Positions 1-52,329 of a stretch of DNA of 64,000 nt are shown here, piece by piece. Position numbers and translations under genes: made by a program. Each line of letters starts with the position of its first letter. Positions within the stretch are counted from its first letter, which is position 1. Source of the DNA: Boletus sp. NGJ (taxonomy: Eukaryota; Basidiomycota; Agaricomycetes; Boletales; Boletaceae); NCBI GenBank assembly GCA_019096195.1, contig JAGTXK010000103.1, positions 248,001-312,000 on the forward strand, written 5' to 3'. The notes under the pieces were generated by a model. It was not told the DNA's origin. It searched no databases and worked only from the letters and a program-made list of their open reading frames with translations.

Positions 1-1689
1 AAACAGCTGTAACTTCAAAGCGAGCGAGAGAAAAGCTGCCAACGGCGAAAGGTACAATCATAAGCGTTATATAAGCCTGTCGGACAACCGTGGGATGTGC
101 CTGCAAGCCTCCTTGTAGGGTGCCTGGACGTTTGCTCCCCACAAAACCCTCTCCACTTCGTGAGAGTCGGGGACTGTATATCGACCATACGGATCGCGTG
201 CATTAATTCAGTCAAGGATGCCTCCTCGCGGACCTGGACCATAATTAAACAGTCTGCTGCGATGCGTCTATACTGCATGCGTGACAGTGGTACAAGTAAC
301 AGTGCACCAAACGGCTGCCTGAGACGAGCGAGGAATCGCAATGCACGCATGGTTTTGTCAAGCATAGCTGCACCATACGAGAACTCTTGATCGAGCAAGG
401 GACTGATCCAGGGATGGATGAGCATGAGATCCTTCTTGCAGCAGGTCATCCGTGGTCTTGATCTCGACGTCCCCAAGTACACCGGTCGTCGCACGATACA
501 CATTGAAGTCCGAATTAGAACCTAATTCCAAGGTACGGAGAAGTCCAACAAGGGGGAAAACCATGCCAGGGAGCCGCAGTCGACTTGCAGCAAAGAAAGC
601 TCGTTGAGTCGACTATGTAACATCACGACCTGCGAAAGATCGGGCAAAGTTGCGTGCAGTTCCGTGACCATGCTGTCCATCTCAGCCGTCTCGATGGGTT
701 GTGGGACATGCAGCGGTACAAGTTGGTCGTAGACCGTGAGGTCAGACGGTAGGCAAGTATTGTGGCTACCCGCGCGACCTGTGACCTCGCCTGAGCCTGT
801 CAGAATGTGTTCCAGGAGTCGGCCCACCGCGCGATCGCCTTCGCCATATATGACTGGAATGGGGACAATGAAGATGCCAAGCAGCGAGTACGCAATATCT
901 TCCACGAACGTCGTTTGACGCAGGGAAGCTAAATAAAGTTTCTCGCGCACTCTCTCTAACCCTGCCAACCCCGTGTAAGAACACCTGCGGCCTGTTGCAT
1001 CTCCGAAATTATAGCAGGCGACTCTTTGTGGTTGAACATATCCACACCAAGGTACGGCTTCCAATCCTCAGTGTAGAACTGGACGGTCTCGGCAGCAATA
1101 TATTCTTGCAACGTCCATGCGCGAGTGTTCCAGATATTTTTCCGAAGGTCACCAGGCTGCTGGAATTGTGACCAGACACCACGGGGGTGGACAATTGTCA
1201 GCGATGAGCCACGATACCATGTAAACATGGCAACCAATGACTCTTGTAACACCACGTTATCCTTTCTATCAATGCAGCAGGTGTCAGACCACACCCATTG
1301 GAATCAAGCGAGCGGATAAAAGTGCAAAACGTCTGGAGTTTAATGTTCGGGGAGGATGACTCTAGCTCGTAGACCGAGATGTTCTCAACCCTCTGAAACA
1401 GAGGTTCACCATGCTCCCACCTGTGGGAGAACATCACGTATCGGTAAAATTTCTTTACCTCTCTCCAAATACGTGCATGGTCGAGCCGAATAGTCATTGA
1501 AGATCGCAGCTCGTCGTAGATCGGGAGTTCCTCGAAGGCTGCTGCTTGTTGTGGTTTATCGTAAAGACGACCCGTAGTGGTGTTGATGAGTACACGTGGC
1601 ATGTAGCGGATGGTCTGGTCGATCGCCCTTCGAATTGTTGATGTGGCATCGATATACTGTTGGAGAAGTTCTATGATTGAGATCAGGTC

Positions 1690-3165
1690 AACACATGTGC
1701 TTCATACAGACGAAATGGCTCAGTACGAATGTGTGGATCAGGAGATTGTTCGAGCTTTAAGAGCATCACCTTGAATGTCCCAAATGCTTCACTGTGGCGT
1801 CCCATGGCCTGTAATGTAGCATCCTTCCTCTCGTACCCTTTATAGGACGAAGAATCAAGTTCGGTAACCTGCTCGGTATATCACTGGGGTCCATTTGATG
1901 CGATGGAAAATACAGTCCATACCTGCTCTGCATCGCTCAATGCCTCCTCCCAGGAACCCAATGACCACTCTCGCTTTGCTCCGCTTGAGAAGAATATCAC
2001 ATTGATTCGTCGGATCGAGTGCCAATGCGTCAGAGTACTGTCCGATAGCTGCGTCGTAGTTCTGAGAGTTCATGGCCGTGTCGCCCAGCTTCTCCAACTT
2101 CTCAACACAACGTCCTCGAAAATCTGAATGAAATGTTTATATTAGCCCAAGCTACGTCGTAGTGACAACCCACCGAGTTCCCATTGCGCTCGCTCATCGT
2201 GGGTACTCCTGTCCTCTAGCTCGCTCTGCATCTGTCGGAAACACTCGACTGCCTCCGTGACGCGACTATCCCCTTCCAGAATGTCGCAAATGACACGATA
2301 AATGACAAACCTCGGTAGCTTGAACTGAACCCAATGACAGTCAATATCCAGATTCAATCCATCACGGAAAACATACCTTGGCAGCGGCAGTCAACGCTTC
2401 ATTCGCTGAGCCATGAATCAGCACCATGCTCGCCCACTTACTGAGTAAGGTGTTCGGAGTTGTGAGACTGAGCAGCAACGCAGCAGAGTAGGCTGCAAGT
2501 GCTTCGTCATGATTCTCAGTACTCGATGCCTCATCTGCAGTCATTTCTAGTGTCAATATACATCGGTTCGTGAACTCTGACAGTAGGAATTGAGTGCTTT
2601 TGTCCCGATTCACAATGCCAAAACTTACTAGCAAGCTAGCCCATGATGAGCCTGAAGAAACACCGCAGCATCAATTAATTATGCGACCATCGGCATACAG
2701 GATTTCGCGTTTCTGTTCATGCATATGAAAGATCTGGACGAGGCTATCCCCTCTGTGTTGGGAATCGGCATGCTGGGTGCGGAGTTGCTGGACGGTTTTT
2801 TCAAGATGGGCGATTTTGTTGTCTAATGGACACCGTGGGATGTGAATGAAGCGCTGACCAGGGTGACGATGTACCCACTCGAGTTCACGCCCTGTACACT
2901 AAGCAACTTGATCGTTTCGTTGAGACTGTCTTCCTTCCGATTGGCCACGCGTTGTGAGTCGGAGAACTGGTTACGGAGTTGCTGGACGGTTTCTTCTAGA
3001 CGTGCAATTTCGCTGCCTAATGGACGTGGATATCAACGACACGCAGTCAGGGTTCCGGTGGACGCACTTGAACGCTCGTCCTGTGCACGCAGGAACCTGA
3101 TTGTCTCTTCAAGATTGGCTTTGTCGACCCTCATGTAGGAGATCTCCCGCTCACGAAATATCTGT
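1690..3165 (-). other. Coiled-coil and TPR middle part of the WD40-TPR-HET gene
   Basis: From 3165 to about 2700 the minus strand reads as a long charged helix with leucine heptads (ANLEETIRFLRAQDE, ARLEETVQQLRNQFSD, AHLEKTVQQLRTQHAD), in fragments separated by stops or introns. From 2634 a TPR region follows (DEALAAYSAALLLS, then VTEAVECFRQMQSELED, then NYDAAIGQYSDALALDP and SWEEALSD). Two clean GT-AG introns join these pieces, near 2375-2330 and 2190-2135. The last piece (YKGYERKDATLQAMGRHSEA) reaches about 1690. Coiled coil plus TPR suggests oligomerisation and partner binding between sensor propeller and HET effector. Confidence 0.7.
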
Positions 3166-3189
3166 TGCAGTCAACCAAGCAATTTATCA

Positions 3190-4197
3190 TTAGGAAGGAA
3201 TCTCGCGCAGCAGTGATGCAGGTGCACTGACATTGTCAGAGTAGGGTGAAGGAAGGATATCACAGAGTTCCCAAAGGGTGACTTTCTTCTTTTCACCAAT
3301 GAGAAGGTCGTAGTTTGCCGAGATAACCATGGATTGGATGGCTTGAGTGTGCTCGATGACAGACCCGATTTGACTATGTGTCGTAGTGTCCCAGAATGAG
3401 ACAGATGAGTTGGCAGAAGCTGCGAGGAATGTGCCGTTGTTTGCAAGGGCGATGCACCTGGGATTGTTGCTGCTGTGAATGCACCATTGAGAGAGCGTCG
3501 TCCCGGTGGACACGTCGAGACAGACGATATTACCACTACGAGACAAGACGAAGAGTTGCTTGCTATCACTGGCCCAGGCAAAGGACTGGTTTTTGCATGA
3601 ATTGACTGGGATGAAGACGTCGACAAGGAGGTCGCCGTTCCGACTGTCGTAGATCCGAGTCACAGAGCTTGCCCACGTAGCAGTGGCAATGAGGCGTCCG
3701 TCGGGTGAGAACTTGACCGCAACCACCCAGTAGTCGTGTTTCAAGGGACCAAGCAGTCGTTGGCCAGTCGAGAGCGACCAGGCGCTGGCAGTGTAGTCAT
3801 TCGATCCGGCCGCGAATCTCTCCCCGTCTGGTGAGACATCCACCGCACACACCCAACAGTCGCCGCCGAGTCTCCGTGTGCGCATGATTACCTTGCTGCA
3901 GCTTTCTAAATTCCACACCGTCACTTCGCCATCATTTGTCCCAACCACGACCCACTTTCCATCTGGTGACCCCGCGATGCTGAAAACAGATTTCTCCACA
4001 TTTATTGGCATCCCTACCTCCTCTCCATCCTCCACTCGCCAACGGCGAATTTGCTTTCCATAGCCACCGCTCACGATGTGCTTCCCATCAGCGAGTGAGG
4101 CAACCGAGTATATGTTATCATGAACATCGATTTCGAGCAGATTTGCTTCCGTTTGGTGAACATTGCGAGAGGCGCAATTATTGTTTTCACTCGGCAC
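3190..4197 (-). CDS. WD40 beta-propeller exon (N-terminal part of the WD40-TPR-HET gene)
   Basis: This uninterrupted 335-codon stretch begins with MPSENNNCASRN, the start I prefer because the first WD40 blade follows about 25 residues later. I count seven WD40-like units, each with a SPDGK-like turn and a W-containing end: RRWRV, TVWNL, SAWSL, TRIYDS, VCLDV, SFWDT and TLWEL. That is enough for one closed seven-bladed propeller, a protein-interaction platform. In fungal NLR-like and HET proteins, WD40 regions are usually taken to be the recognition part. The exon carries no visible damage, unlike the downstream HET part, so an automatic annotation might call it as a stand-alone WD40 gene. Splicing out of its end near 3190 is not clear. 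Confidence 0.85.
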   Translation of the reverse strand: MPSENNNCASRNVHQTEANLLEIDVHDNIYSVASLADGKHIVSGGYGKQIRRWRVEDGEEVGMPINVEKSVFSIAGSPDGKWVVVGTNDGEVTVWNLESCSKVIMRTRRLGGDCWVCAVDVSPDGERFAAGSNDYTASAWSLSTGQRLLGPLKHDYWVVAVKFSPDGRLIATATWASSVTRIYDSRNGDLLVDVFIPVNSCKNQSFAWASDSKQLFVLSRSGNIVCLDVSTGTTLSQWCIHSSNNPRCIALANNGTFLAASANSSVSFWDTTTHSQIGSVIEHTQAIQSMVISANYDLLIGEKKKVTLWELCDILPSPYSDNVSAPASLLREIPS

Positions 4198-4499
4198 TTC
4201 AAGGGACCCACGTCAGTATAAACATCTCGACTAGGTAGCCACCATTGCTTGGCCACCAACCTATCTCCGAAGACATCTTTGGTCAGGTATCCGAGCGATG
4301 GAAAGAGGGATGTATGGTTATTCGTGACTCGCGGTGCGCCATGGTCGCCTGGCATATACGTGTCTCCTTATAATCGTCTATCAGTTCACACGTATCTATT
4401 AGGTGCCATTTCATCTGTATCCTACAAAGTAATGCGTTGTGCAGAAAACCGTCGTGCCATTCATCAGAAATTGGACAAGCGATGTCCTGTGGCCTAAGA

Positions 4500-5306
4500 C
4501 TGAGATTCTGAACGGAGAGTTTCAAAAGTAGGTGTGACAATCCTGTCAGCATTGGCTCAGACTGGTATGGATACGATTGCCATCTTTCTGGATGGATGGA
4601 TCTTGAAGTTTGTCCCTGTCTCTAGACCACGGTGCGGCCGCCATTAAGGATCGCTTATCTGCATCTATCCGGGAAGCTCGTTGATGACGCGGATACACCA
4701 GCGTGGCGAGTCAAGACTCTAAACAAGGGTTAGTTGTGCCCGAGTTTCTTTGTGACGCAGCGAAGTGCTGAAGATTACATTAGCTGACTTGATCGATATG
4801 CTTGACAAGCTGATCGAAGCCGTCGATGAAGAAAGAGCTCTCTGAAGAAGGTCTCGTGTCGATTGATGACATGGTGCTGCCGCACATCCGGCACTGGGAT
4901 CGCCTTGCTATACTAATCCGTGACAGAGCGATCGCCCCGGTGACGCTTCTACCTTTGGCGCTGGGTGTATCGACACTCACGATTGTCGCCGCCATCGTGG
5001 TGGTCACTCTAATCTACCTCTCTGTTGAAGCCTATAATGAGTGGGAGATCCTGGAGATGTTAGTGCGATGTGTCCTGCTTACTGAATTGCTGTCGTAGGT
5101 CCTTTAGACGGTTCGTAACACGCCATCAGAACTCCCACATCCTCAATACATTGCATGGGCGTGAGAGTCAGGCTCCTCAGGGCGGAGACGGACATGAAGG
5201 CGACAACGATGACAACTATGATGGTCGGGATGGTCAGGGGACTGAAGCAGTTCAGGATGGGCACAAAGATGAGGGTGTTCACGGAGGCGGTAACATTACT
5301 AACTGA
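4500..5306 (+). pseudogene. 3' relic of a DUF2235-HEAT-TM gene
   Basis: From about 4530 the DNA aligns with the last exons of the DUF2235-HEAT-TM genes (11480-12610 in copy A). It keeps the end of the HEAT region (GVTILSALAQT in the intact copies), the conserved helix ending LPHIRHWDRLAILIRDRA, a hydrophobic helix (VTLLPLALGVSTLTIVAAIV) and a tail rich in Gly, Asp and His ending at 5306. The catalytic and most HEAT parts are missing, the Pro/Ser linker is deleted and the frame shifts just before LSEEGLVSIDD. It is a truncated ancestral array member abutting the WD40-TPR-HET gene, and marks where the array once began. Confidence 0.8.
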
Positions 5307-7571: not shown

Positions 7572-10500
7572 ATGACCACTGAGAGTCCTAGCACTTCTCC
7601 TCACATCGAGCACGCGGGCACGTCGACGATTAAGTCACCTTTCCGGGCTTCGTTCTCCAGATGCAGTCAGTGCAACGCCCGACATAGGGAGAGCACGAGG
7701 AACTTAGTCGTATGCATCGATGGGACTTCTAACCAATTTGGTCAGAATGTAATTGTTTCATATCTGTGTAGTGTCTTTCTCTCAGCTCACGACAATGGCC
7801 AGAATACCAATGTGGTGAAACTGTTCGCTAAAATCGATCTGGAGACGACCCATCCAGAACAATATGCATATTATTCCAGTGGAATTGGCACGCGGCCGAA
7901 GTCGTTGCATATATTTAATCGCATGGAAAGAGCAGTCTCTGATAAATTCGACATGGCGGTTGCATGGTTCGTACTCGTTATAATTATCTGCTTTTTGACG
8001 CACTGAAATACTTTATGGCAGGAATATGGAGGAAATTGTTAAGGATGCCTATGGCTGGCTAGCACGAACGTATCAAGAAGGAGACCAGATATACCTCTTT
8101 GGTGAGTTTGGTTCCTCATCATAGTTCTCGCAGCTGACGGTTACGGTACAGGTTTCTCTCGAGGTGCATATCAAGTACGGGTTCTCGCGGGGATGATACA
8201 TGAAGTATGGGCCAATCAGTTTCGTTATTCATCATGTAGAGCTAAATACGTGCGTCAGGTCGGCTTGATAAGAACGCCAACGGAGAAACAGATTGGAACG
8301 TGGGTAATCACTGCGTAGTTTGTGTGAGCTTGACGAACCACCAGACAGGGCTTACGATCACTATGAAGCGATTCGTTCAGGAAAGCCGAAGACAAGGCAA
8401 ATCGCTAGAGAATTCAAGAATACGTTTTCTTGGAAGGACCTAGGAGTGCACTTCGTCGGAGTATGGTAAGTTTAACATCTTCATTCCTCAATCGAAAATG
8501 CCTTAGCTGAGATCGGTCAGGGATACTGTCTCCTCTGTGGGGATGATAAGAGGGGACGTCTTCCTTTCGACTTCTTCGTCCGCAGCACATGCTTGCCATT
8601 TCCGACACGCGCTTGCTCTGGACGAGCTTCGGGTCAAGTTCATGCCAGAGTATTTCCATGAAATGAACTCTCAAACGAACGACGGGAGGTCCAAGTACAT
8701 CGTTACCTCCCTTGATGCTGAGCATACTGCAACTCCCGCGAGCGACCGGCGTGAGTCAACTGTGAGCGACAATGGCACTAGTTTTTCTGGAGGAAGCAGG
8801 AACAAGACTACTGAAATCAAGGAAGTCTGGTTTGCCGGCAGTCACTCGGACGTGTGGGTATGCCTGCGAGACCCACTCTTATGATACTGACATACTTTGT
8901 ACAGAGGTGGTAAGAACAGACCTGGAAAGTCTCATCAGGCTGGGAACGTCTCCCTACTGTGGATGCGTCGAGAAGCGGCTGCAAGTGGTCTCGTGTTGCA
9001 GCCGACAGATATAGTTTGGGTTCCGGACGATCTTGATTTTGGCATCAGTAACTCGATGACCCGTGCATGGCGAGCCATTGAATATATGCCCATCAAGCAA
9101 CAAGTATCCTTTAGTGGTGCTGGAGATGATGCTCGACGGTGAGACTTCAAGTGGTCTTCCAAGTTCGTGTTGTTGATATCGCGCTCGGCAGCTTGCATCG
9201 GCTACAACCACGTCGTATCATACCCGGTCAAAAGGTCCATGCTTCCATTTTGTTTGCAAACGCGTATAGTCCACAGGCAACGCTAGGGGAGGGTTTCGAC
9301 ATTCCCACCATACACGGTGAACTCGAAGATGCAGAACTGGACAGCCAAATTTGGGAGACGGGCTTGTTCGACGATACCGCAGCACAAGAGTTGATGACCT
9401 ACCTGGGTAGCCAGCAAGGAGTTGCTCCAATATACCTCGACAGGTTGTTGTTCATGCTGCGATTCAGTAAGGTTTCTTTACCTTCCCGGTCATCCACTTG
9501 ATAATCACGCCACCTCCGACTTCAGAGGAGGGAAAGCAATGCGTCAGGAACGTGCCCCAATGGCAAGACCAGTTTATGAACCTCATCCACAACCGCGAGT
9601 GTGCACCGCTTGTGAGGCTTGTCACTATCGTCGCCTATTACGAAGCTGGTGAGTGTCCGATCTTTAACACGTACGTCGTGTCATATATAATCTTTCGTTA
9701 CAGCTTGCGACTCTGAGGCGCACCCAAAGAGTCCTGCGCCGCCTCAGATCGAACTTTCGCAAGATATATTCGATGATGCGAAGAAATGTCTCAGAGCCAT
9801 TCTGGCTGCACATAAGCATCGTGATGGTCCCAGAGTGGTTGCTCTCTTGAGACCCTTGACTAAACATGAGATTTTGCGACAGCGCATTCTCACCAAGGAT
9901 GTCTTGGAAACTCTCGTGAAGCTACTCGATGTGATCGTTGAGCAACCGGGAGGGAATTTTGGACAGGCGATGGACGGCCTGACCTGCCTGTTGCGATGCG
10001 GTACGTTGGTGACCATCGTGCATCTAGCCATTCGTTTATGGTCCGTTAGAGGACACCCGGCAAATTATCACTGAGAAGCTCGGGGCCAATTGCTCAAACT
10101 CTAACGTACGCAGACTCTCCCGGATATTAGAAGTCAAAGGTAGGAACCACATCTATGGTCGGGACTACATGGAGATATATCATTCTTCGTAGAACCCCAC
10201 CTTTTGACTGCCGCGCTGCGCACGGTATTGACCCTGGCACGAATTCCGGATGGTAAGCATCTCACCTTCGTTAGTGAGCTATAGTAACTCAGTAGCGGCG
10301 TGCAGAGAGAGCGAGATCTGTGTGCACCCTAGTGAAACCTAGGATAAGAGAGTTGGCGAGAGAAGATGAACGACTAGTTGGTCTTATCGCTGTTGAAATA
10401 TTGCTTGCCCTGTACGATCCGGGTGACCAAGGTAAGCAATACGTTCTTGAACATGCGCTCTCGTCTAACATTCCGAGTTTTAGACCAACTAGACATTCAT

Positions 10501-12610
10501 GATCCACGCATTCGAGCTAATCTCGCCAGTGCCTTGGTCGGCTTAAACCCCAGCAGACACAATGCAACTGATGGAGAAGGTCGCGACGTAGATCCTGGGC
10601 AACAAATATTGCGTCGTCTTTTCGGGCTGGGTGAGTGACCACTGATGTTCATCAGGGCATTACTAACTTGGTTCGACCTTGATATCCTTCGTATCAGACG
10701 CTGCGGCACTCAATGACCAACAGAGAAAACTCCTTGGAGAACTGAAGAAGGCTATTCAGAAGGGGAGTGCCCGGGAGCGTACCGCTGCGACAATGACCCT
10801 TCTGAAGCTGTGCGAGAGTGAGTCTACGTTTTGACGCACCGAAGACATGAGTTTACCGTTCATCAGCTGACATCATTCGCACTTATCTCCGCGAGGTCAA
10901 CCTGTTGGGCGTCTTTGTCAAGCAGTTGCAACGGAGGGACTGCGCACTGCTTGCCGCATACGCGTTGGCCACCTGTTTGAAATTTGGTGAGTAGGATTGC
11001 GTGCGATAGGAGTTACGTAGCTCAGAATCGCACTAGGCGATATGAAGGAGTCCATCAAGGATAACGAACTCCTTCCGAAAAACATCGTTGGGATGCTGCG
11101 ACTAGACTATTTCGACGATGCTGTTGGCCAAGTCGAAGGGTTCCAGATTTTCGGTGACTTTATGCAACACGGTAATGAACTACCCCGGTCATTCTTGATT
11201 ACCGCATACTGATCCATGCGAGTTAGATGACCTGCGGGAGAAGATTAAGAAATACAACATCACGGAGGTCCTGAATACGAAGCTAGGAAAGGGCAAGGCG
11301 AAGGAGATTCGGACAAGCCTGATTTGTTTGGACATCTTCAGGTCCTTTGGTGCGTATTCGGAATGGCGGGGTTAGTTCATCATAGCTGAGGCACCTCCTA
11401 GAGCAGGACGGCCCGTGGACCCGCGAGCTTGTCGCCAAGAGTTTGGAACATCTACAGAACTCGGCATGGAAGGCTCAGAAAGCGGGTGTGACAATTCTCT
11501 CTGCGTTGGCTCAGACGGGTAAGCGTCATCGCCATCCTGAAGATGTTATCTGAGTTCTATGACTTTAGAGCACGGCGTGGCGGCCATTGTTTCTCAGATA
11601 GAAAAGATCATCGAGATGCTTCTCCCGGATGGTTATCTGCCCATACAGCCGCCTGTGCCAGGTGCAACGCCAGCGAACCCAACTTCCCCTAGCGAAGGTC
11701 AAACACAATCAGCTGCGATAACCACGGAGTCTGCAGACCCTCGGTCACCTACCTCACCGGATGCGCCGTCCAGGCCACCTTCGTGGATGTTGGGGCCCGC
11801 ATGCGCGCTGCGTATTTTGGCGCAGAACAGCAAGTGTTACTTGCTGTCTTGCGGAGACGATGGAACTGATGCGATGATGTGTTATTTCAGAGGTACTGCG
11901 GGACCGTACGCGCGAGACGATGCAATACGGCAGTTTGAAACATTTGTACCTATCCGGAACGCTCGTCGAGGAGGCAGACACGTCACCGTGGCGCGTCAGG
12001 ACCCCAAATCGAAGTGAGCCAACTTTTTCGTATCAGATGGGGTACTGAAATATGTTTCTTTTAAAAATCTCAGCTGACGTCATAGACATGCTCGACAAGA
12101 TGATCAAAGCCGTCGACGAAGAGCTGTCGGAAGAGGGTCTCATGTCGATCGGGGATGCGGTGTTGCCCCACATTCAGCATTGGAACCGACTCGTGACGCT
12201 GCTCCGCGATCGGGCGGTAGCAGTGGTAACCATCCTCCCAGCCCTACTCGGCGTCTCAGCGCTGGCGATCCTCGCCGTGGTCGTACTCACGCCGATATAC
12301 CTGTCTGTCCGGGTGTACGAGTGCGTATCGGAGAGCTTTTCTTCTTCTCGTCAATATGGTGAGACTGATGCGGACCAACTTATCTAGGTTCTTCAGACGG
12401 CTACTGTCGATCCATCAGAATACCCGTATCTTGGATAGTCTGCGTGAGGGATTTGGTATACACGGTGCCGAGGCTGCTCGTGGTGAGCACGGAGTTGAGG
12501 CTGTTGGGGTTGCCCATGAGGGCGAGGGTGCTCCGGCTGGACGTGACGGTGAACCTTCAGGTGACCATGACGGTGGAAGCCCTGTGGGTGTCGGGATCAT
12601 GCATACCTAG
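7572..12610 (+). CDS. DUF2235 (Tle1-like) hydrolase with HEAT-like repeats and C-terminal TM helix, copy A
   Basis: This is a multi-exon gene of roughly 1100 residues with introns of about 50 bp. The start follows CACC in CACCATGACC. DUF2235 motifs occur in order: RNLVVCIDGTSNQFG, NTNVVKLFAKID, SGIGTRP, GFSRGAYQVRVLAGMIHE (about residue 140, the GxSxG nucleophile), VGVWDTVSSVG, and AGSHSDV followed by GG. Ser, Asp and His of a lipase-type triad are therefore all present. Next come HEAT/ARM-like helices (VKLLDVIVEQPGG, VAKSLEHLQNSAWKAQKAG), a Pro/Ser/Thr-rich linker near 11660-11790, a conserved helix (LSEEGLMSIGDAVLPHI), a hydrophobic helix (VVTILPALLGVSALAILAVV) and a Gly/Glu/His-rich tail ending MHT. 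In bacteria this fold includes Tle1 phospholipases; the fungal substrate is unknown. Splicing near 9100-9175 is not obvious in this copy because its acceptor differs from those of B and C, so integrity is probable, not certain. Confidence 0.8.
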
Positions 12611-12869: not shown

Positions 12870-13105
12870 CAAAACAGAAGCCTGAAGCATCTGCATCTAT
12901 TCGGGAACCTCGCTGATCATTAATCATTGACAAGGCGAATACATCAGTGTGGCGAGTGAGGACTCCAAACCGGGGTTGGTTGTGCCCCAGTTTCTGTGTG
13001 ATGGGGTGAAGTATAGATCGCATTAGCTGACGTGATCGGGATGCTTGGCAAGGTGACCAAAGCCGTCGACGAGGAGTTCTCGGATGGTCTTATGTCGATT
13101 GCTTT
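12870..13105 (+). pseudogene. Second 3' relic of a DUF2235-HEAT-TM gene
   Basis: This short stretch matches the penultimate exons of the array genes and of the relic at 4640-4860, including a shared TGTGGCGAGT block and the region for the conserved helix (GMLGKVTKAVDEEF, then GLMSI). It stops before the membrane helix. It shows that the array unit once carried a further copy. Confidence 0.65.
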
Positions 13106-13277
13106 ACCATCCAACAGGAACGAAGTTCATACGTACAGTAAGACGTGAATTTCAGCTGAATCAGCTCGGGCTGCTGGGCACTGGTCCGAAACCTGTGGAC
13201 CACAGGGCGTAAACAAACACGTGATATTCCTTGAATAAGGTGTGTTGCCTCTTCCTGGGACGCACGTTTGATCATGA

Positions 13278-14561: not shown

Positions 14562-14693
14562 TCTTTTAACGCACATACCTACTGAGTTTGTCCGTTCCAG
14601 ACCTATCCTTGTTCTCTATACTGTGTCTCAACATCCACCCTGGCCACTGAGAGTCCTGGGACTTCTCCTCACATCGAGCACGCACGCACGTCG

Positions 14694-40541: not shown

Positions 40542-40678
40542 GAAGATTCAGGATAAACTACCGTCCATTACGCATCCAGACAGATTATTACGAAGTACTA
40601 CGATTTAAAATAGAAAGAAAAAAAAGTAAACCATGAGGTTGCGTGGTCCGTTAATTAGATGGTTTGAAAGTAAAGCAT

Positions 40679-41254
40679 CTACTGAATGGCGATGCGCTTG
40701 GCCTGCCGTTCGGGAGAGGCCTTTGGGAACGTTATCGTCAAAAGGCCGTTCTCCATCCTGGCCTTCACGTCTTCGGGCTGACATGCTGCGTTAGCATCCA
40801 ACGTGGAGAGAAAGTCAGTCCATGAACTTACTTTGATCCCGAAGGGAAGCTGCAACGTCCGGGAGAATTTCCCGGAGCGGCGCTCACGAACGACGTAGTT
40901 TCCCTCTTCCTGAAAGTCCGAAACGGCTGATTCACCAGAGACCGTTAAACGGTTCTCGTGGACATCAATGGAAACGCTTTCTGACGTCCAGCCGGGCAGC
41001 TCAAAGGTTGCTGTTACGGTATTGGTGTCCTTGGATTCGTGAAGGTTCAATCTAGAGAGAAGATTGAGTAGGGATAACGAAAATATAGGGAAACCCAATT
41101 ACTTTGGACGGTAAATGTCGCGCTCTCGTGGTGTGGCCGCGTGTCTACCCTCTGTCAAGGGAGCGCAGGTACGAGGGCAGACCCGAGCTGTAGGAGCGTC
41201 TTCAAAGAGACGGTCAAACTTAGTGGTGGGGCCGTAGAAGTGGATCAGGGACAT
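40679..41254 (-). CDS. Small heat-shock protein, Hsp20/alpha-crystallin family
   Basis: Three exons (41254-41103, 41051-40832, 40777-40679) with GT-AG introns encode 156 residues. I start at MSLIHFYGPTTKFDRLFED because this matches the usual N-terminus of fungal Hsp20 proteins. The alpha-crystallin domain is clear: VTATFELPGWTSESVSIDV, NRLTVSGES, YVVRERRSGKFSRTLQLPFG, then PEDVKARMENGLLTITFPKA, and the protein ends AKRIAIQ. It is an ATP-independent holdase that binds unfolding proteins in the cytosol and forms oligomers. No obvious nGAAnnTTCn heat-shock element was found in the 250 bp upstream. It is a normal intact host gene, flanked by HET units 1 and 2. Confidence 0.9.
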
Positions 41255-42569
41255 TTGTGATGTCTGGAGAGTTGGTACGATTGGGGCTACTGCTGCTTGG
41301 AGCGAGGGATAGAGTCGTTGGTACAAGTTGTGAAGATATCGTTATGAGCAAGACGGTCGTGGATGCTCCCCTTTTATAAGGCTCAGCAGTGCATCTGTAA
41401 TGTTCTGGATTAAAGGAGAATGTAGAATTTGTTCGTGCGACAGAGAGTCCACCATAATGTTCGAGCGTACCCTTGACGATTCGACAACTTTCGAGGACGG
41501 TGAGGCCTGTTTTGGAAGGCGACATGTTGTCATCTATTTGGAAAATAACGGAAATGGCAACTTCGTTCGTCAGCCAGGACGCGGGCAGAATATATTGCAG
41601 GGAGCATTTAGTACGAATCATTTGTGCGCTGTGAACATGAAGCTCCGTTCGGGCCAAGTAGTATTGCTCATCCCAATGTCGAGTTGGCCAGTCAATGACA
41701 AATATTCCAGATCCTAGATAATGCACAGTAAATCCTTGCCATGTTTAACTAGTAGTAAAACGGACAACCTGGGCGTTGGCCGACGTCCTGCCAGGTGTGC
41801 CATATGCAGAATAGTGCCCAAGCACCTACTATATTACTCAATGCCTGTTGGAGCGGTCCAGCCCGCAGGGACGTAACAATATGGTAGAAATGATAGAAAG
41901 AAGCAATGAACGAAGGAACTTGAGAACCATTCGGGATCTTAGAAATGAACTTGCCTCTCACTGCATGACGATAATCACCTCCAACATACGGATTGATATT
42001 ATGACTATGAAGCCAGAGACCCTCTTTGCAAGGTCATCGAAATTCGAGAACCACTGGCAAAGCTGTGCTTGATGTTTTCATACAGTGCGTTTTGCCAGCT
42101 GTTTGTCCATCATGATGTTCCTGACCCTCACCATACTACTTCTGACCAGGTCGATAGGCACGACTGGTTTCAATCCTTCGCAATCATTCCACGGTCTCCA
42201 TGGTATGGCTTGGGCATGAATATCAACGAGGTATTGCTCAGCCTGAGCGCAATCGTCACTGTACCTCTCAGTTCTGGTGTTTTTACGATATTCTCCATTG
42301 GAGGTTTTTCCGGGTCAGGGAATGAACTAAACAATAGCGAGTGTGCAGTTTGCGTTTTGCTACAGTTTAGCGCAACACACAACAGCTTAATTACTGACTG
42401 CTGATGGTGAGAGTTTCATTCTACGAGTCGTAGTAGGGTGCGAGCATGTTGAGGTCCAAGTTCCAGGTAGTGACTGCAACGAGATTCCTTAGTGTCTACG
42501 TAAGCACGAGAAGTGCACCTCGTGGCACTGCAGGCCGGATTCACTTTCAAGATTGCCATCGATCAGGTC
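41255..42569. other. Hsp20 promoter region and 5' flank of HET unit 2
   Basis: The first ~400 bp should contain the Hsp20 promoter. From about 41790 the sequence matches the flank before HET-1, and 42110-42500 matches 47900-48240 before HET-3. No gene was recognised. Confidence 0.5.
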
Positions 42570-44806
42570 ATGGAATCCTCACATTCGATTGTCAGACTCT
42601 GTGAGGTGTGCTCAAAACTCGACATACCACACTCGACACATACTATCCATCCCTGCCGCGAACAGTTACTGTGTTCCACACCCCCAATTGAGGGCGCACA
42701 TGCAACTTTCTTCCCTCTGGGATCCATAGATGAAATCAAGGGCCGGCGCGTCACTTGCGACTTTTGCAAACTCGTCGCCGAAGGCCTGGATAAAGAGCCC
42801 TCAGACCTCGAGGGTGATTGCTCTGTGATGAAAAGCGAACAGGTTTGGAACTTCAAGTTACCGAGCGACGTCAAGGCTCGAGATCCCAGCGTCACGCATT
42901 TCCATCTTACACAGCTCTCCGTCCTCTTCGATCCGCCGAAAGAAAATCGATTCCAGGGTCCGTCCCTTCCCTGGGAAGTCAAAGCGAAAGCGAGAGATCC
43001 CCAGTCAAGCCACTACATTCAAAATTTCCAGGTTAGCCACAACCAGGTTTCGAGCCCCATTAATGCTAAACAGTCGGATCAAGGTCAAGGCCAGATCCTG
43101 CGCCAAATCAGGAGATGGAACTGCGGCCTCCCCGCAAACGGAACAAGAATTCCTCGACACGATCGGCGGCAGATATGTTTCCACACAAGTAAATGTACAA
43201 CTCCTACGTGCGTGGCTTCACCAGTGTGAAAGCGAGCACGGCGAGGCTTGCATACCTTCATCGCAATTTCCTGTGGAGCGAAGCAGAGAAATGGGTTTTC
43301 AACCGACTTTCGTGGTCGACGTGATCCAGTCGTGTCTTGTAGACACTCCGTCACATTGCCGCTACGTTACGTTAAGCTACGTCTGGGGTACAGCTCCTGT
43401 TTTCAGGCATCTTCTAGAGAACACCAAAGATCTTCGAAAGACGAATTCCCTACACTCCTTCCCTATTCCCGCCACTATCCGAGATGCCATAACCCTCGTT
43501 CGCGCCATCGGGGAGCGTTATATATGGGTAGACTCCCTCTGTATCATCCAAAACGACTTGAAGATGCAGCAAAGCAGAGATTGTGCGGATGGGATCAATT
43601 TATTCGAATGCTCTGTTTACCATAATCGCTGCGGCTGGAGATCATGCAAATAGAGGCCTTCCAGGTATCGAACGGGAATCCCGTGAGCAGGTACAGAAGT
43701 CCTTGAAGTTCGCCGACTGTGAGCTCCTGACGGTCATTGATGTCCGCCGTACGGCAAGCGGAATCAACGACACGATATGGGCGGAACGGGCATGGACGTT
43801 CCAGGAACGGGTGTTGTCCAACAGAGTATTGGTATTCTCAGATACTCAAGCTTACTGGAGCTGTCGTGCGGCATCGCACTCAGAAGAGCGAGCTCTCGAA
43901 CAAATCCGGGAAATCAATTGGCGTTCCTTTAAATTACCATTCCCTCAGCAACCCGCCACTGATTCCCTGTCCTGGAAGCGTCTCCAGCCATTGGAGTATT
44001 GCAATACCTACTACGACCTACTCGCCGGTTACCGACAGCGTCGTTTGTCCTATCAGACAGATATGCTGAACGCATTTGATGGCGTCTCCGAGATTCTTGG
44101 AGCACTGCAAGACGATACATTCCACTGGGGCCTTCCAGAATCACTTTTTTCATACGCGATGACATGGTCTTTCACTGGTCCTTATTCACGAAACGATGTC
44201 GAGGTCCCTGTCTTCGATAGCAACGGCTCCAAAGAAATGGTTTCAATCCCTTCCTGGAGCTGGGCAGCGTGGTCAGGGGCAGATCCGGCCCGCCCCCCCT
44301 TTCTCCATGCTGGGAATGACACTCATGTGCGACCTGTGATTGATTTCGACATAGTGGATGGGAATCACAAGTTGGTCAGGATTAAAGACCGGCCGATGCG
44401 GGGCCATCCCGGCGATTTTGCTCCTCCGTTATGGAAGAATGAGCATCCTCATCAGTTTCAATCTCTCACGCAACACTCCGTCTCGCAAATTGGCCAGTTA
44501 TACTTCTGGACCAGTCTTGCGAACCTGAGGGCAATGCGACGCTGGAGCGACGTGCCAGTGGGACCGGGTCATGTGCAATATATACCTTTTCCTTCTCCTC
44601 CCGATTTTCTACCAGACCCAAACGCTATCAGTGAGATCGTACACCAGGACTTCATCGTGGTTGCAGCGCGCGACCCTGGGGAGTTAATCCTTTTGGCTAT
44701 TGAGTGGAAAGACGGCGTGGCATACCGAGTGGGAATAGCAGATGCCAATGAAGTGGAGTGGCTTCGGGTGAAGAACAGGGAGTGGCGGTTGATCACGCTG
44801 GGATAA
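42570..44806 (+). pseudogene. HET-domain protein, HET-2, one frame break in the HET core
   Basis: This is a close paralog of HET-1 and HET-3 with the same two-exon layout (exon 1 42570-43031, intron to 43083). It has MESSHSIVRLCEVC, CDFCKLVAEG, YVTLSYVWG, WVDSLCIIQND and IYSNALFTIIAAAGDHANRG. The frame is open except for one shift near 43573, between WVDSLCIIQNDLKMQQ and MGSIYSNALF, where the sisters are continuous. Translation would stop about 25 codons later, so the HET domain is truncated. The rest is well preserved (ending EWRLITLG), so the break is recent, or a sequencing error. A shorter C-terminal product from 43583 is possible but would lack the key first half of the HET core. Confidence 0.85.
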
Positions 44807-46330: not shown

Positions 46331-46486
46331 ATGATGGATGTCGATAGGGGTTGACCGGGACCGCAGGTCCGTGATAAACTAAGAGAAACAAGTTCGAACT
46401 GAACTATCGGTGTGCAGGCTCGGAGTATTATGCCGGCTAACATGTAGGCTTTCTTCTGCCGAAGCATGTATTCATACCACCGCATG

Positions 46487-47460
46487 TCATTGTGCTGCCT
46501 TCTCGACGATCGACCACTGCAACCCGACTTTGCGTGAACCAGTAGGCTCATCATCTCGCCGGAACAGGTCGTCGACCGACTCAAGCGTAAGTCCTGCCGT
46601 CTCGGGATAGAACGCCCACACGATATATACATTGACAAAGTTGAAGACTGCGAAGATGATGTATGTCTTGTATCCAATGTTGCGTAACGCCGGCGGTGTG
46701 ATTTGGACGACCTGCGAATACATGTGCTTCGATCAGCACCCGTTGTTGCCGTTCGAAAACCGGATGATGTGAAACGAACCACAAAGTTTCCCAGGAAGTC
46801 GGCTGCTGCTGCAAGTGCAGCACCCTTTGCACGAAGCTTGAGAGGTAGGATCTCCGGTGGATAAATCCAGACGGTCGCCATCCAACCTACGTGAATACGT
46901 CAGAAACGAACACGAAAACGAAAAGGTATAATGATTGACCCCAAGTAAAGCACGATTCGTAGGCAAAGACCAGGAAGACGGCACCAATACTTGCCCGAGA
47001 TGTGTTCAGCTTCACACAGATAGCTTCTAAGACGAGCACGAGACACTGTCCGTATGCCATCGATATCCAGAGCTTTCGACGTCCGACACGATCGATAGTG
47101 TACCACTATATGCAGTACACCGCAGTTAGATGCCGAAGAATTATGAACGCACATATGCTTACAGTAACAAAGGGGGCTATGATGTACCACACTTGCAGGA
47201 AACAGCCAAGGAAAAGAGACCGTTCTTGTGACATCCCTAGGCTCTCTTGGAACAACGTTGGCGCATAGTATGTGACGATGTTAATGCCTAAGGGGACGAC
47301 TTCGAACGTTGTACGATTGCATACTGTTGCAACGTACCTGTCATCTGTTGCATAAACTGTATGCCGAGGACAAGGTAGAATCGCTTGTTTCCCCGAATGC
47401 TGTGGTCTTTGAAAAGGTCTGCACTGTAAAGTCTCTACCCCACACACAACCTGGGATAAT
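46487..47460 (-). pseudogene. MFS sugar transporter, 5' truncated
   Basis: Minus-strand exons encode the C-terminal half of a major-facilitator sugar transporter: NKRFYLVLGIQFMQQMT, GINIVTYYAPTLFQESLGMS, LFLGCFLQVWYIIAPFVT, WYTIDRVGRRKLWISMAYG, WMATVWIYPPEILPLKLRAK, ITPPALRNIGYKTYIIFAVF and WAFYPETAGLTLESVDDLF, ending VEKAAQ. Conserved family features are GRR after the loop helix and PETAG at the end. Introns with proper borders lie at about 47335-47280, 47165-47100 and 46935-46880. Nothing matching the first five or so membrane helices is found above 47460. A 50-bp piece of its 3' flank recurs at 55088-55136. Confidence 0.82.
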
Positions 47461-48303
47461 CACCAGGGATAACCAGGAAGGTAGTCATGCCTACTAAGGT
47501 TAGCCAGGAGCACCAATTAATCACGCCTCCGTGCTCTGGAGCCTGAACTTTGTCCGGCCCAGGATCTACGCTTCATGATAAGTACAGGCAAACCCTTTTT
47601 GTCGCGTATAGGACTGTCGGCGTGTTCGTGAGAGCGAGAGATGCATGTCGTTCTCAGAACATAGCTGAAAAAAACCTCGGGTAGACGACCCGGAACGTAT
47701 TAGTGTTCACTTTTTCCCATTTGAGACATAACAGATAAAAACACTCCCTTTCATAAACTTTTCCACAAAGACGGTCGACAGCCAATAGCGAACTCTTTAT
47801 TTGATGTCTATGCAAATGCGTTTAAGACAGGTGAGTTCGAGACACCGGTACTAGGTAGTCCAGAGATGAAGAAAACAAGTCACGTTTATTTCAAGTTGTT
47901 CATCATGATGTTCCTACGAAAACCTAACCCTCACCATACTTTCGACCAGCACGATTGGTTTGAACCATTCCACGGTCTCCATGGTATGGTTCGGGCATGA
48001 ACATCTGAAGAAAGGGAAGAGGTATTCAACTGAGCGCTTCAGGTATTTTTACAACATTCGTCAAGGTTTCCAGTGAATAAAAATAGCGAGTTTGCGTCTT
48101 TCTACGGTTTTGCGCAACCCACAACGGCACAATTATTGATTGCTAATGGTGAGAGTTTCATTCTACAAGGCGTAGGGTGCTGCGCATGTTGACATCCAAA
48201 CCTCTAGTATTGACTGCAATGAGATTTCTAGTGCCTACGTAAGCTCGAGCAGCGCACACAGGCCCGGGCCGGATTCACCTTCAAGACCGCCATCGATCAA
48301 GTC
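47461..48303. other. 5' flank of HET unit 3
   Basis: The first 350 bp hold nothing recognisable. From about 47900 the sequence parallels the flank of HET-2 (42110 onward). No gene was seen. Confidence 0.5.
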
Positions 48304-50564
48304 ATGGAATCCTCAGAGTCGATCGCGAGACTCTGTGAGGTGTGCTCAAAACTCAACATACAACGCTTCACACATCCTCTCCATCCCTGCCACGACCCGT
48401 TACCGTGTTCCACACCCCCAATCGAGGGCGCACATGCAGCTTTTTTCCCTCTTGGATCCATAGATGAAATCAAGGGTCGGCGCTTCACTTGCGGCTTTTG
48501 CAATCTCATCGCCGAAAGCCTGGATAAAGAGCCCTCAGACCTCAATGGAGAGTGTTCCGTTCGGGAAACCGAAGAGTTTTGCAACTTCAAGTTGCCGATA
48601 GACGTCAAGGCTCGAGATCCCAGCATGACGCATTTCCATCTCACACAGCTTTCCGTCCTCTACTATCCGCCCATAGAAAATCAATTCCATGGCCCTTCCC
48701 TTCCCTGGGAACTCAAAGCGAAAGCGAGAAGTCCCCATTCAAGCCACTACATTCAGGTTTTCCAGGTTAGCCAAACTAGGTTTCGAACAAGTTGATACTA
48801 AACAGTCGGATCAAGGTGAAGGCCAGATCCTGCGCCGAAGCAGGAGATGGAACTGCAGCCTCCCCGCAAACGGAACAAGAATTCCTTGACACGATCGGCG
48901 GCAGATACGTTTCCACACAAGTGAATGCACAACTCTTACGTGCATGGCTTCACCAATGTGAAAGCGAGCACGGCGAGGCTTGCATGCCTTCGTCGCGACT
49001 TCCGGTGGAGCGAAACAGAGAAACGGCCATTCGATCGACTTTCGTGGTCGACGTGATCCAGTTGTGTCTTGTGGACACTCCTTCGCAATGCCGCTACATC
49101 GCTTTAAGCTACGTCTGGGGTACAGCTCCTGTATTCAGGCATCTGCTAGAGAACACCAGAGATCTTCGAAAGAAGAATTCCTTACACTCCTTCCCTATTC
49201 CCGCCACTATCCGAGATGCCATCACCCTCGTTCGCGCCATCGGAGAGCGCTATATATGGGTAGACTCCCTCTGTATCATCCAAAATGACTTGAAGATACA
49301 GCAAACAGAAATGATGCGGATGGGGTCAATTTATTCGAATGCTCTGTTTACCATAATCGCTGCGGCTGGGGATCATGCAAATAGAGGCCTTCCAGGTGTC
49401 GAAACAGGATCCCGTGAGCAGGTGCAGAAGATCTTGAAGCTTGCTGACTGTGAGCTCCTGTCGGTCATCGATATCCGCAATATGTCAAACGGAATCGACG
49501 ACACGACATGGGCGGAGCGGGCATGGACATTTCAGGAACGAGTGTTATCCAGCAGAGTATTGGTATTCTCGGAGAATCAAGCTTACTGGAGCTGTCGTGC
49601 GGCATCTCACTCAGAAGAGCGAGCTCTCGAACAAGTCCGGGACATCAATCGGCTTCACTTACCATTCCCTCACCGACGCGCCACTGATTCTCTGTCCTGG
49701 GAGCGTCTCCAGCCATCGGAATACTGCAGTACCTACTACGACCTACTCGCCGGTTACCGACAGCGTCGTTTGTCCTATCAGACAGATATGCTGAACGCAT
49801 TTAATGGCGTCTCCGAGATTCTTGGAGCACTTCAAGACGATACATTCCACTGGGGCCTTCCAGAATCACTTTTTTCATACGCGATGACATGGTCTTTCAC
49901 TGGTCCTTATTCACGAAACGGTGTCGAGGTCCCTGTCTTCGATAGCACCGGCTCGAAACAAATTATTTCAATCCCTTCCTGGAGCTGGGCAGCATGGTCA
50001 GGGGCGGACCCGACCCGCTCACCCTTTCTCCATGCTGGGGTTAGCACTCATGTGCGACCTGTGATTCAATTCGACATAGTGGATGGGAATCACCAGTTAG
50101 TCAGGATTAAAGACCAGCCAATGCGTGAGCATCCAGGCGATTTCGCTCCTCCGTTATGGAAGAATGAGCAGCCTCACCAGCTCCACCCTCTCACGCAGCA
50201 TTCCGTCTTGCGGATTGGCCAGTTATACTTCTGGACCAGTCTTGCGAACCTGAAGGCAGTCCGACGCTGGAGCGACCTGGGACCGGGTCAGGTGGAGTAT
50301 GTACCTTTAATTCCTTCTCCCGATCTTCAACCAGACCGTATACCTTTAATTGCTTCTCCCGATTTTCTACTAGACCCAAACGCCATGCGTGAGATCGTAC
50401 ACCAGGACTTCATCGTGGTTGCAGCGCGCGTCCCTGGGCAGTTGATCCTTTTGGCTATTGAGTGGAAAGACGGCGTGGCATACCGAGTGGGAATAGCACA
50501 TGTCAGTAAAGTGGAGTGGCTTTGGGTGAAGAACAAGGAGTGGCGGTTGATCACGCTGGGATGA
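48304..50564 (+). CDS. HET-domain protein, HET-3
   Basis: Two exons (48304-48765 and 48816-50564) give about 736 residues. The start MESSESIARLCEVC is the only in-frame ATG compatible with the conserved N-terminus. Paired cysteines (CEVC, CGFCNLIAE) precede the HET core: YIALSYVWG, IPATIRDAITLVRAIGERY, WVDSLCIIQND, IYSNALFTIIAAAGDHANRG, WAERAWTFQERVLSS. It is continuous where HET-2 breaks. It differs from its sisters by a 39-bp tandem duplication near residue 650 (50302-50340 and 50341-50379), giving a repeated PLI(P/A)SPD unit. It ends EWRLITLG. It is likely an intact non-self-recognition or cell-death regulator. Confidence 0.9.
50302..50379 (+). repeat. 39-bp tandem duplication inside HET-3
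   Basis: Two 39-bp units start TACCTTTAATT at 50302 and 50341. HET-1 and HET-2 have only one unit at this place. The duplication keeps the frame and adds 13 residues. Confidence 0.88.
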
Positions 50565-50888
50565 TTCACAGATCGGTTTGAAGGAGAAGCACCGAGTTCA
50601 CCAACGTCTCGCATCTCAAATGTACAGTAATCCGGCTTGTTTTTCTCTTGTACAATTCCGCTTCGGAACAGTTTAAGTGCGTGGTCAGATGTTTCGGGAG
50701 CTGAATCTCCCTGTGGTGATGGCGCCTTTGGATCGTGCATGCCACTCACGGCCGGTGACCTTGTCCCTGCCGTCTTCAAAGTTAAATTCGATAGATCAGC
50801 TATGTTTTGTGGGAAAAGGAGTTGATTCCTTTCGCCCTTAGTCGAGAATTGGACTGTTATTCGAACCTTCGTACTGTAGCAACTACTC

Positions 50889-51420
50889 TTACTACCAGCT
50901 TGCGGCTTGTCAGACTGCTCGATGTGAAAGTGATGCTCTTCGGCATCGTGATGATCAGTGTACTCAACCTCCGAAGTGACAGTGTATGTGTTTCAACCGA
51001 GTTTACCACCATTGAGCTGGGATGACATGGACAAAAGTATACCACAAGGAAATAGCTGCACAGTGTCTGTGGAAAGTACGTATTAATTCATCTCAAAATG
51101 CTAATTTTTCTCAGAACTGTCCAGGATCAAGTACTGCAAGCCAGGGTACCCTGCAGTCGTCATATTCGAAACGCATTCCGCAGCCAACACCGCGCTTATG
51201 GTATGGTTCACATATGAACAAGGGGTCACGATTACAAAAAAGAGGATGCCCGCTACCTGAAGATGTTGCGCAGCTCTGTTTTGTCAAAAGAAATTTTGAA
51301 TCGTGACGCGCCAGTGTATTTATTGACTGTAACTGGCAGCGACCTGTCAGGTATTGTCGATATACTTTCCGGCATCATCGAGGGCGACACGCACGTTGAC
51401 TGCTGCTTGATCAATATGCG
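50889..51420 (-). pseudogene. Vip1-like RRM protein gene fragment, copy 2
   Basis: This is near-identical in layout to 45789-46330: VTGASRFKISFDKTELRNIF, GKIKYCKPGYPAVVIFETH-like exon, LNGGKLG and SEVEYTDHHDAEEHHFHIEQ to DKPQAG. The C-terminal region is deleted, with the break at 50888 joining directly to the HET-3 flank. The first RRM exon is better preserved here than in copy 1. It is truncated and so a pseudogene. Confidence 0.7.
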
Positions 51421-51479
51421 ACATGGCTGACGATGATGGATGTCGATAGGGGTTGACCGGGACCGCAGGTCCGTGACAA

Positions 51480-52329
51480 ACTGTAATGTACATTCTAGTA
51501 GTACGAGTTCGCGGGCACGAACAGAACTTTGTCTTTGCGCGAGTGGCTGTGACCCGGTACTCTCTTTCTTTCGCTCCTTCGTCAGTTAGCCTACCAGCCG
51601 CGCCCTGACCCCGTTCTTTCTTTTTGCCCACCCACCACACCCTGTGATTCTATCGGGACCTTCAGAGTCCCATCAGAATTGCCTTGCTGGACCCTCGCTG
51701 TCGCGTTCTCCGAGATCACGCGCCCACGACTCGCTGCGTGCAAGGCCTTTCCCGGCCCGCCCACGCAACTGACACTCGGGCCCCCCAGGTTCTCCCAGAT
51801 CGCGGCTGGGAGGCGCTTGGCGCCTTCGCCCACACTCAGTCGGCTTAGTCTCTTTCTCTTCCTCTGCAACTCGGATCACACAACGACGATCAAAGACCTT
51901 TGTCTTTGCATTTTCCACTACATTTCACTCGCCATAAATACAGCTGCCCCGGACTGCCTTGTATAAGGGAACTGTTTTGTTTACACAATTTTTGCAATCC
52001 GGGCGTGGATACTTCTATCATTGACCACTTTTACCTACTCCGATAAGAGCTCCTCGATCGACTCTCAGTAATATTTGATCCCCTCAACCCCAATGACTCT
52101 ATATAGGCATCGGTGCTCCAGACAGTAACCCTGCCTTTTTTCGTTCAATTTCGCACCCACGGACGGCTTCGACTGGGCGCGACAGTTCGCCGTTGAACGC
52201 ACGAGGCACCACCGCAGCCCAAAGGGCGTTGCCCATCAAAACATCACCCAGCCGAATCTTTGCCTTTGGGAATGAGATGGCGGCTGACAGTCAAACACCA
52301 CAGCTCGCTACTAAGATTCTCGTCATTTT
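51480..52329. other. GC-rich segment before the chitin synthase relic
   Basis: The HET-unit duplication is interrupted at about 51480, where the counterpart at 46376 continues into the transporter flank. The inserted DNA begins TGTAATGTACATTC and is GC-rich to about 51850. It may be the promoter and leader of the chitin synthase relic that follows. Open frames here look non-coding. Confidence 0.45.

What the first reader, a model, noticed from the sequence alone, without database searches (positions are those of the whole stretch)
15..51480. Candidate fungal non-self-recognition island: WD40-TPR-HET, DUF2235-HEAT-TM array and a HET triplet
Within 51 kb there are one WD40-TPR-HET gene, three DUF2235-HEAT-like genes with two relics, and three HET genes. 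HET domains are established in heterokaryon incompatibility. Clustering with an expanded, membrane-anchored serine-hydrolase family, with duplication, decay and sequence exchange in both, is what is expected of allorecognition or immune loci. That the DUF2235 family takes part is inference.
Basis: partly seen in the sequence, partly recalled or inferred. Interest (0 to 1): 0.7.

Follow-up and report, generated by a model that had tools for sequence, protein, structure and literature searches.

The report
Fungal hydrolase and HET gene cluster
A stretch of a fungal chromosome holds two repeatedly copied gene families, membrane-tailed lipase-like enzymes and HET cell-death genes, that have exchanged sequence and partly decayed; they resemble fungal immune genes, but that the two work together, or tell self from non-self, is not shown.

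Summary
The gene content is largely as reported: three tandem DUF2235 (now 'Tle1-like catalytic', PF09994) genes with two relics at 4.65-35.7 kb, three HET genes at 37.8-50.6 kb, a WD40-TPR-HET gene at the left end. Corrections: the WD40-TPR-HET gene and HET-2 are frameshifted in the HET domain, and DUF2235-C stops before its membrane helix. DUF2235 A, B and C otherwise look like constrained genes: 21 of 21 introns canonical in each, every exon-length difference a multiple of three, Ser-Asp-His motifs kept, dN/dS 0.45-0.71. 'HEAT' is below Pfam threshold; 13 same-phase exons and helical periodicity suggest an alpha-solenoid. B is a mosaic of C-like 5' and A-like 3' sequence; exchange among the HETs is weaker but detectable. 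A diverged block on contig C127 keeps a truncated DUF2235, HET and Hsp20 in the same order, so the linkage predates it. But only 2 of 7 DUF2235 places lie within 35 kb of a HET (P 0.10), the C42 pair of the long type has no HET match on its contig, and C127 keeps an open HET beside a truncated DUF2235. Allorecognition could not be tested. Best reading: a transposon-rich birth-and-death cluster of immunity-like families; functional coupling unproven.

The parts
174..4355 (-). WD40-TPR-HET gene, frameshifted in the HET core (near 1303-1306) and again near 600; probable pseudogene
   Evidence: tblastn with the C114:225556-229659 paralogue model; not among the 53 PF06985 matches
4650..5035 (+). 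relic 1: C-terminal (membrane-helix) part of a DUF2235 gene
   Evidence: tblastn 54-77% identity; blastn 73% to relic 2
7572..12610 (+). DUF2235 gene A: Tle1-like catalytic domain, alpha-solenoid-like C-terminal half, one C-terminal membrane helix; 24 exons, 1237 aa
   Evidence: PF09994 E=2.4e-74; exons; hydropathy 2.79 from residue 1138
12889..13158 (+). relic 2: C-terminal DUF2235 remnant
   Evidence: blastn 73-92% to relic 1 and 79% to genes A and B
14694..19337 (+). DUF2235 gene B: as A, mosaic (5' half like C, 3' half like A), membrane helix kept; 1128 aa; start taken at the first in-frame ATG (A's start codon reads TTG here)
23776..28024 (+). Plavaka-type transposon between B and C (gene-finder model)
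   Evidence: PF18759 E=2e-20 for the first 694 aa of the model
31192..35726 (+). DUF2235 gene C: catalytic and solenoid-like parts open, stop before the membrane helix; 1094 aa
37842..40118 (+). HET-1, open, intron 38361-38411, 741 aa
   Evidence: PF06985 E=2.1e-33 for the long exon
40679..41098 (-). Hsp20 gene beside HET-1 (one ORF with an apparent intron); similar DNA beside HET-5 and beside the C127 HET
   Evidence: PF00011 E=8.8e-19; DNA matches
42558..44806 (+). HET-2, frameshifted inside the HET domain near 43.57 kb
46487..46881 (-). sugar transporter (MFS) fragment; neighbouring sequence repeated next to HET-3 and at C114:321-325 kb
   Evidence: PF00083 E=1.1e-19
48283..50564 (+). HET-3, open long exon (594 aa) plus 5' exon
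   Evidence: PF06985 E=8.5e-34

Best explanation
This is a transposon-rich birth-and-death cluster of two physically linked, immunity-like gene families in a fungal genome, on a contig rich in HET genes. One family encodes intron-rich Tle1-like serine hydrolases (Ser-Asp-His motifs kept) with an alpha-solenoid-like C-terminal half; two of the three copies end in a hydrophobic helix and would sit as tail-anchored, cytosol-facing enzymes on a membrane. The other encodes HET-domain proteins of a type known to trigger regulated cell death. The most likely mechanism, inferred, is that the solenoid senses or is released by a partner and the hydrolase then acts on lipids of its own membrane, while the HET proteins act separately through their TIR-like domain. 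The families were linked before the C127 block arose and then expanded by tandem duplication with gene conversion. Shown: gene structures, constraint, catalytic motifs, mosaic, linked block. Inferred: lipid substrate, sensing, cell death. Not shown: that the two families act together or take part in allorecognition.
For:: 22 exons shared by A, B and C; GT 21/21 and AG 21/21 in each; exon-length differences all multiples of 3 (4 of 4 A-B, 5 of 5 A-C), whereas 5 of 6 and 10 of 13 intron-length differences are not; dN/dS 0.45 (0.36-0.59), 0.51 (0.42-0.63), 0.71 (0.56-0.92). Tle1-like domain; the family profile matches Tle1 structures 9j3f (E=6.9e-7; GFSRGA and HSD motifs aligned) and 4o5p (E=2.2e-4); one search aligns the DTV motif to 4o5p, though that single-sequence hit is weak (E=0.96); 13 of 13 consecutive C-terminal exons keep phase 1, 8 of them 117-126 nt; helical moment at 100 degrees z=3.4, at 170 degrees z=-3.0; hydrophobic helix near the C terminus of A and B. 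DUF2235 mosaic, chi2 152 and 140, 0 of 200 and 0 of 500 shuffles reach it; HET within the homologous stretch chi2 24, 0 of 500; seven colinear pieces over C127:314655-323144; 10 of 52 HET loci on C114 (expected 1.4).
Against: No expression, substrate or cell-death data. The solenoid has no significant family match and the spliced proteins were not folded. The C127 DUF2235 shows no match to the solenoid and membrane part while its HET stays open. dN/dS is relaxed and reaches 1.02 for B-C in codons 340-600. Gene models come from my own simple gene finder plus paralogue comparison, without transcripts. Assembly errors could mimic the frameshifts.
Confidence: 0.6

Rival explanations
1. Chance neighbours: two expanding families that landed and tandemly duplicated in the same transposon-rich region; their adjacency has no functional meaning and the C127 block is one passive segmental copy. 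(Compatible with the anatomy above; it denies only that the linkage matters.)
For: 2 of 7 DUF2235 places within 35 kb of a HET, P=0.10; no HET match on C42, C79, C81, C43; open HET beside a truncated DUF2235 on C127 and an open HET copy on C62, where searches list no DUF2235; Plavaka, MITE and retrotransposon gag sequence in the window.
Against: Order kept on C127 over 8.5 kb; A, B and C retained under constraint.
Confidence: 0.45
2. Non-self-recognition (het-type) locus: DUF2235 and HET products of different alleles meet after hyphal fusion and trigger death, as in the HET/PII-like het-B pair of Podospora.
For: HET family, gene conversion, linked unlike genes, HET-rich contig; het-B is a precedent for a HET gene with a linked unlike partner (PMC10890737, passages read).
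Against: Purifying selection between paralogues; partner truncated on C127; no allele to compare: the tested flank C114:220.7-224 kb is single copy; most HET genes are not allorecognition genes (PMC12881547, passages read).
Confidence: 0.12
3. Ordinary lipid hydrolases: the tail-anchored DUF2235 enzymes do membrane lipid turnover or stress response, and HET proximity is irrelevant.
For: DUF2235 was among the domains reported upregulated in Armillaria under Trichoderma attack (PMC10269595, passage read); short DUF2235 genes lie elsewhere (C79, C137).
Against: Copy-number change, mosaic exchange and relics are unusual for housekeeping enzymes.
Confidence: 0.25

Closest known systems
Bacterial Tle1 phospholipase effectors (PF09994; PDB 4o5p, 9j3f)
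   Same: catalytic domain with GFSRGA, DTV and HSD motifs
   Different: fungal genes with 23 introns (gene A), solenoid-like C-terminal half and a C-terminal membrane helix; nothing here suggests delivery by a secretion system
Other fungal DUF2235 genes (here C79 and C137, models of about 500-520 aa); DUF2235 in fungi is recorded as Tox-ABhydrolase-1 in PMC3482391 (passages read)
   Same: same catalytic domain
   Different: no solenoid half and no membrane helix in the models
sesB-like and patatin lipase domains of fungal NLRs (PMC4986451, passages read)
   Same: predicted lipase effector in a gene family linked to cell death
   Different: those are fused to NACHT/NB-ARC; no NACHT match lies in the window (the one on C114 is at 83.6 kb)
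HET-domain genes such as het-B of Podospora (PMC10890737, passages read)
   Same: PF06985 domain, lone HET protein, linked unlike gene
   Different: no lectin-fold or PII-like partner was seen (not searched for specifically); no allele data
Two-gene fungal death clusters (gasdermin/protease, HET-S/NWD2; PMC10197012, PMC12881547, passages read)
   Same: candidate effector next to a candidate signalling gene
   Different: close linkage does not recur significantly among the 7 DUF2235 places tested here

Membership tests
PF09994 (DUF2235 / Tle1-like catalytic) | profile match over the whole domain | tested here: met
   gene A 1-287 of 287, E=2.4e-74; 6 of 6 members of A1 match
PF09994 (DUF2235 / Tle1-like catalytic) | Ser-Asp-His catalytic residues | tested here: met
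   S143, D212 and H319 of A kept in B and C and aligned with Tle1 motifs; that these are the Tle1 triad is recalled
PF09994 (DUF2235 / Tle1-like catalytic) | phospholipase activity | not testable with these tools
   needs an assay
ARM/HEAT solenoid | profile match above cut-off | tested here: not met
   ARM_ARMC5 E=0.046, 13.5 bits against cut-off 79.9, in 3 of 6 members
ARM/HEAT solenoid | tandem two-helix units of about 40 aa | tested here: inconclusive
   13 of 13 same-phase exons, 8 of them 117-126 nt, and helical periodicity; no structure
PF06985 HET | full 146-position domain in an open frame (HET-1, HET-3) | tested here: met
PF06985 HET | open frame in HET-2 and in the WD40-TPR-HET gene | tested here: not met
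   frameshifts
fungal NLR | NACHT domain in the window | tested here: not met
   8 NACHT matches listed in the genome, none in the window; NB-ARC not searched
heterokaryon-incompatibility locus | polymorphism or balancing selection between strains | not testable with these tools
   no second strain held
two-gene fungal death cluster | recurrent close linkage | tested here: inconclusive
   2 of 7 places within 35 kb, P=0.10; C127 adds a linked pair but by duplication; one genome only

The most novel reading that the evidence does not exclude
The solenoid-bearing, tail-anchored Tle1-like hydrolases are an undescribed class of fungal membrane-damaging immune effectors, kept with HET signalling genes in a chromosomal defence island comparable to bacterial defence islands.
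Probability: 0.13. Interest if true: 0.75.

Novelty: new variant of a known kind. Interest (0 to 1): 0.4.

Why it matters
Whether fungi keep defence islands, and what HET proteins do, are stated open questions (PMC10197012, passages read). If the tail-anchored Tle1-like enzymes are effectors, a domain best known as a bacterial weapon would serve fungi as a self-directed one. The region gives concrete, testable genes: two membrane-anchored hydrolases, one natural variant without the anchor, and two open HET genes. If the null is right, it is an ordinary example of gene-family churn in a transposon-rich region.

Tried and rejected
C127 as a retained second allele: not supported as far as tested, because the flank C114:220.7-224 kb is single copy; the flank query from L027 was not scored. 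HEAT by Pfam or PDB sequence search: no significant match (the one PDB hit, E=0.13, is a designed PPR protein). Structure of HET-1: the AlphaFold model from two aligned sequences had mean pLDDT 28 and was discarded; no fold search was run. The spliced DUF2235 proteins were not sent to the folding tool, because by my reading of its rule only contiguous translations pass. PADLOC: 0 hits for 2 proteins. Rfam: 0 hits at gathering threshold. First two gene-finder settings over- or under-predicted introns and were discarded. WD40-TPR-HET as an intact gene: the gene finder made a 1011-aa model only by skipping part of the frameshifted HET region. HET exchange: the first test (chi2 48) included a 5' flank where HET-1 is not homologous to the others, so I repeated it inside the homologous stretch: chi2 24.0, 0 of 500 shuffles, and in exon 2 alone 18.6, 1 of 500; the claim is now weaker. 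Hsp20: the first Pfam hit rested on a hybrid I had typed (see below) and was redone on the window's own ORF. Organism: Phlebopus portentosus assemblies are 30.4-32.7 Mb with about 49% GC (PMC12411881, passages read); this genome is 32.8 Mb and the window 48.4% GC; that proves nothing. Literature: six searches with DUF2235 or Tle1 and four on HET or NLR showed no paper on this architecture or pairing in the listings or in the passages I read; only open-licence PMC texts are covered.
Full report
SETTING. The window is C114:248001-312000 of a 32.8 Mb, 141-contig genome. Short GT-AG introns, a Plavaka transposase and retrotransposon gag fit a fungus, probably a basidiomycete; the species is not known to me. 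PF09994 gives 25 exon matches, which I group as 10 genes: three in the window, two on C42, and one each on C82, C79, C81, C137 and C43. A further fragment on C127 shows only in DNA searches. HET (PF06985) gives 53 matches, merged to 52 loci, 10 of them on C114. By the tool's own note, counts of large families are lower bounds.

DUF2235 ARRAY. Genes A (7572-12610), B (14694-19337) and C (31192-35726) align over 22 shared exons. In each copy 21 of 21 introns start GT and end AG, and exon-length differences are all multiples of three (A-B: 4 of 4; A-C: 5 of 5), while intron-length differences mostly are not (5 of 6; 10 of 13). dN/dS is 0.45 (A-B), 0.51 (A-C) and 0.71 (B-C), with bootstrap upper limits of 0.59, 0.63 and 0.92; for B-C in codons 340-600 it is 1.02. 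These are constrained genes, though the constraint is relaxed. A's start codon reads TTG in B and C, whose first in-frame ATG lies 18 codons later. Gene C stops before the membrane helix that A and B carry. Two C-terminal relics lie upstream of A and of B, so the duplicated unit includes relic, spacer and gene.

PROTEIN. The N-terminal third is a full Tle1-like catalytic domain. Its Ser, Asp and His motifs are kept in all three copies. A profile of six genome members matches the Tle1 structures 9j3f (E=6.9e-7) and 4o5p (E=2.2e-4); the Asp motif is seen aligned to 4o5p, whose own E-value is only 0.96. The C-terminal half is encoded by 13 consecutive exons that all keep phase 1; 8 of the 13 are 117-126 nt, about 40 residues each. 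Runs of 9 and 10 symmetric exons appear in the models of the two C42 relatives. The half shows a helical hydrophobic moment (z 3.4) and a low moment at the beta angle (z -3.0) against 100 shuffles. That suggests an alpha-solenoid, but no family profile supports it. A hydropathy scan finds one strong hydrophobic helix near the C terminus of A; B has the same helix, a second weaker stretch just after it and a weak one at residue 531; in A nothing else passes the threshold. A tail-anchored, cytosol-facing enzyme is inferred.

HET GENES. HET-1 and HET-3 are open; HET-2 and the WD40-TPR-HET gene are frameshifted in the HET core. Two further copies lie outside the window at C114:321.5-328.6 kb, one open and one with frame changes, and single copies lie on C62 and C127. 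dN/dS among five open copies is 0.33-0.53 in 10 of 10 pairs. In 90-codon windows mean dN is 0.06-0.09 in the first three, which include the HET core, 0.11-0.145 in the next three and 0.10 in the last. An Hsp20 gene (PF00011 E=8.8e-19 for the window ORF) and sugar-transporter sequence accompany several copies.

EXCHANGE. Gene B is 85-100% identical to C over the first ten 200-column windows and 87-99% identical to A over columns 2800-4600. A single-breakpoint test on the three gene bodies gives chi2 152 and 140, with 0 of 200 and 0 of 500 shuffles as high. For the HET triplet the first test was inflated by a non-homologous flank; inside the homologous stretch chi2 is 24.0 (0 of 500), and in exon 2 alone 18.6 (1 of 500). 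Exchange is therefore clear for DUF2235 and modestly supported for HET. The shuffles treat sites as independent.

LINKAGE. Seven pieces of C127:314655-323144 match the window in the same order: 4930-5477, 6195-6694, 31475-31657, 31848-32617, 35898-37673, 37832-40236 and 40482-41559, at 75-88% identity. So relic/spacer, DUF2235, HET and Hsp20 were linked before that copy arose. No C127 match was found for the first DUF2235 exons or for the solenoid and membrane part (window 32618-35897), while its HET is open. This argues against an obligate pair. Across the genome, taking C114 and C42 as one place each and leaving out C127, 2 of 7 DUF2235 places lie within 35 kb of a HET locus; 0.56 would be expected and P(2 or more) is 0.10; within 7 kb it is 1 of 7 (P 0.13). 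The distances were chosen after seeing the data.

HET-RICH CONTIG. C114 carries 10 of 52 HET loci against 1.4 expected (nominal P 1e-6); without the eight strongest loci it has 5 of 44 (nominal P 0.006). Tandem copies are not independent, so these P values are too small. C137 holds two NACHT matches, one HET and one DUF2235 within about 82 kb.

JUDGEMENT. The interpretation as an allorecognition island goes beyond the evidence. What can be defended is a birth-and-death cluster of two linked families with immune-like features, one of them a constrained, partly tail-anchored Tle1-like hydrolase with an unusual C-terminal half, for which the six DUF2235/Tle1 paper searches turned up no description in listings or passages seen. 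Whether the linkage is functional or a chance neighbourhood is close to even.

Noticed in passing
window 13271-13513 and 30233-30496: A foldback MITE with arms 88% complementary, about 240-260 bp, with 19 further places outside the window listed at 82-97% identity; the two copies sit just upstream of DUF2235 genes B and C.
   Followed up: partly
window 40679-41098; C114:328718-329640; C127:322026-323144: Hsp20-containing DNA lies next to three HET copies of the family; lone similar copies at C114:357 kb, C114:68 kb and C109:77 kb.
   Followed up: partly
window 45773-46380 and 50869-51482: Repeated sequence downstream of HET-2 (sugar-transporter side) and HET-3 with an inverted 157-bp piece in one copy.
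   Followed up: no
C137:5-87 kb: Two NACHT matches, one HET and one short DUF2235 gene on one 199-kb contig; a second place to look for an immune cluster.
   Followed up: no
window 55743-56752 and 63357-63998: A DUF6532 gene model on the minus strand (E=2e-43) and retrotransposon gag (E=6.8e-8).
   Followed up: no
C114:80-110 kb, 175-230 kb: Several further WD40-TPR-HET-like gene models and a NACHT-WD40 gene model.
   Followed up: no
window 35898-37673: A 1.8-kb stretch between DUF2235-C and HET-1 is 81% identical on C127 although no convincing gene was found in it.
   Followed up: partly
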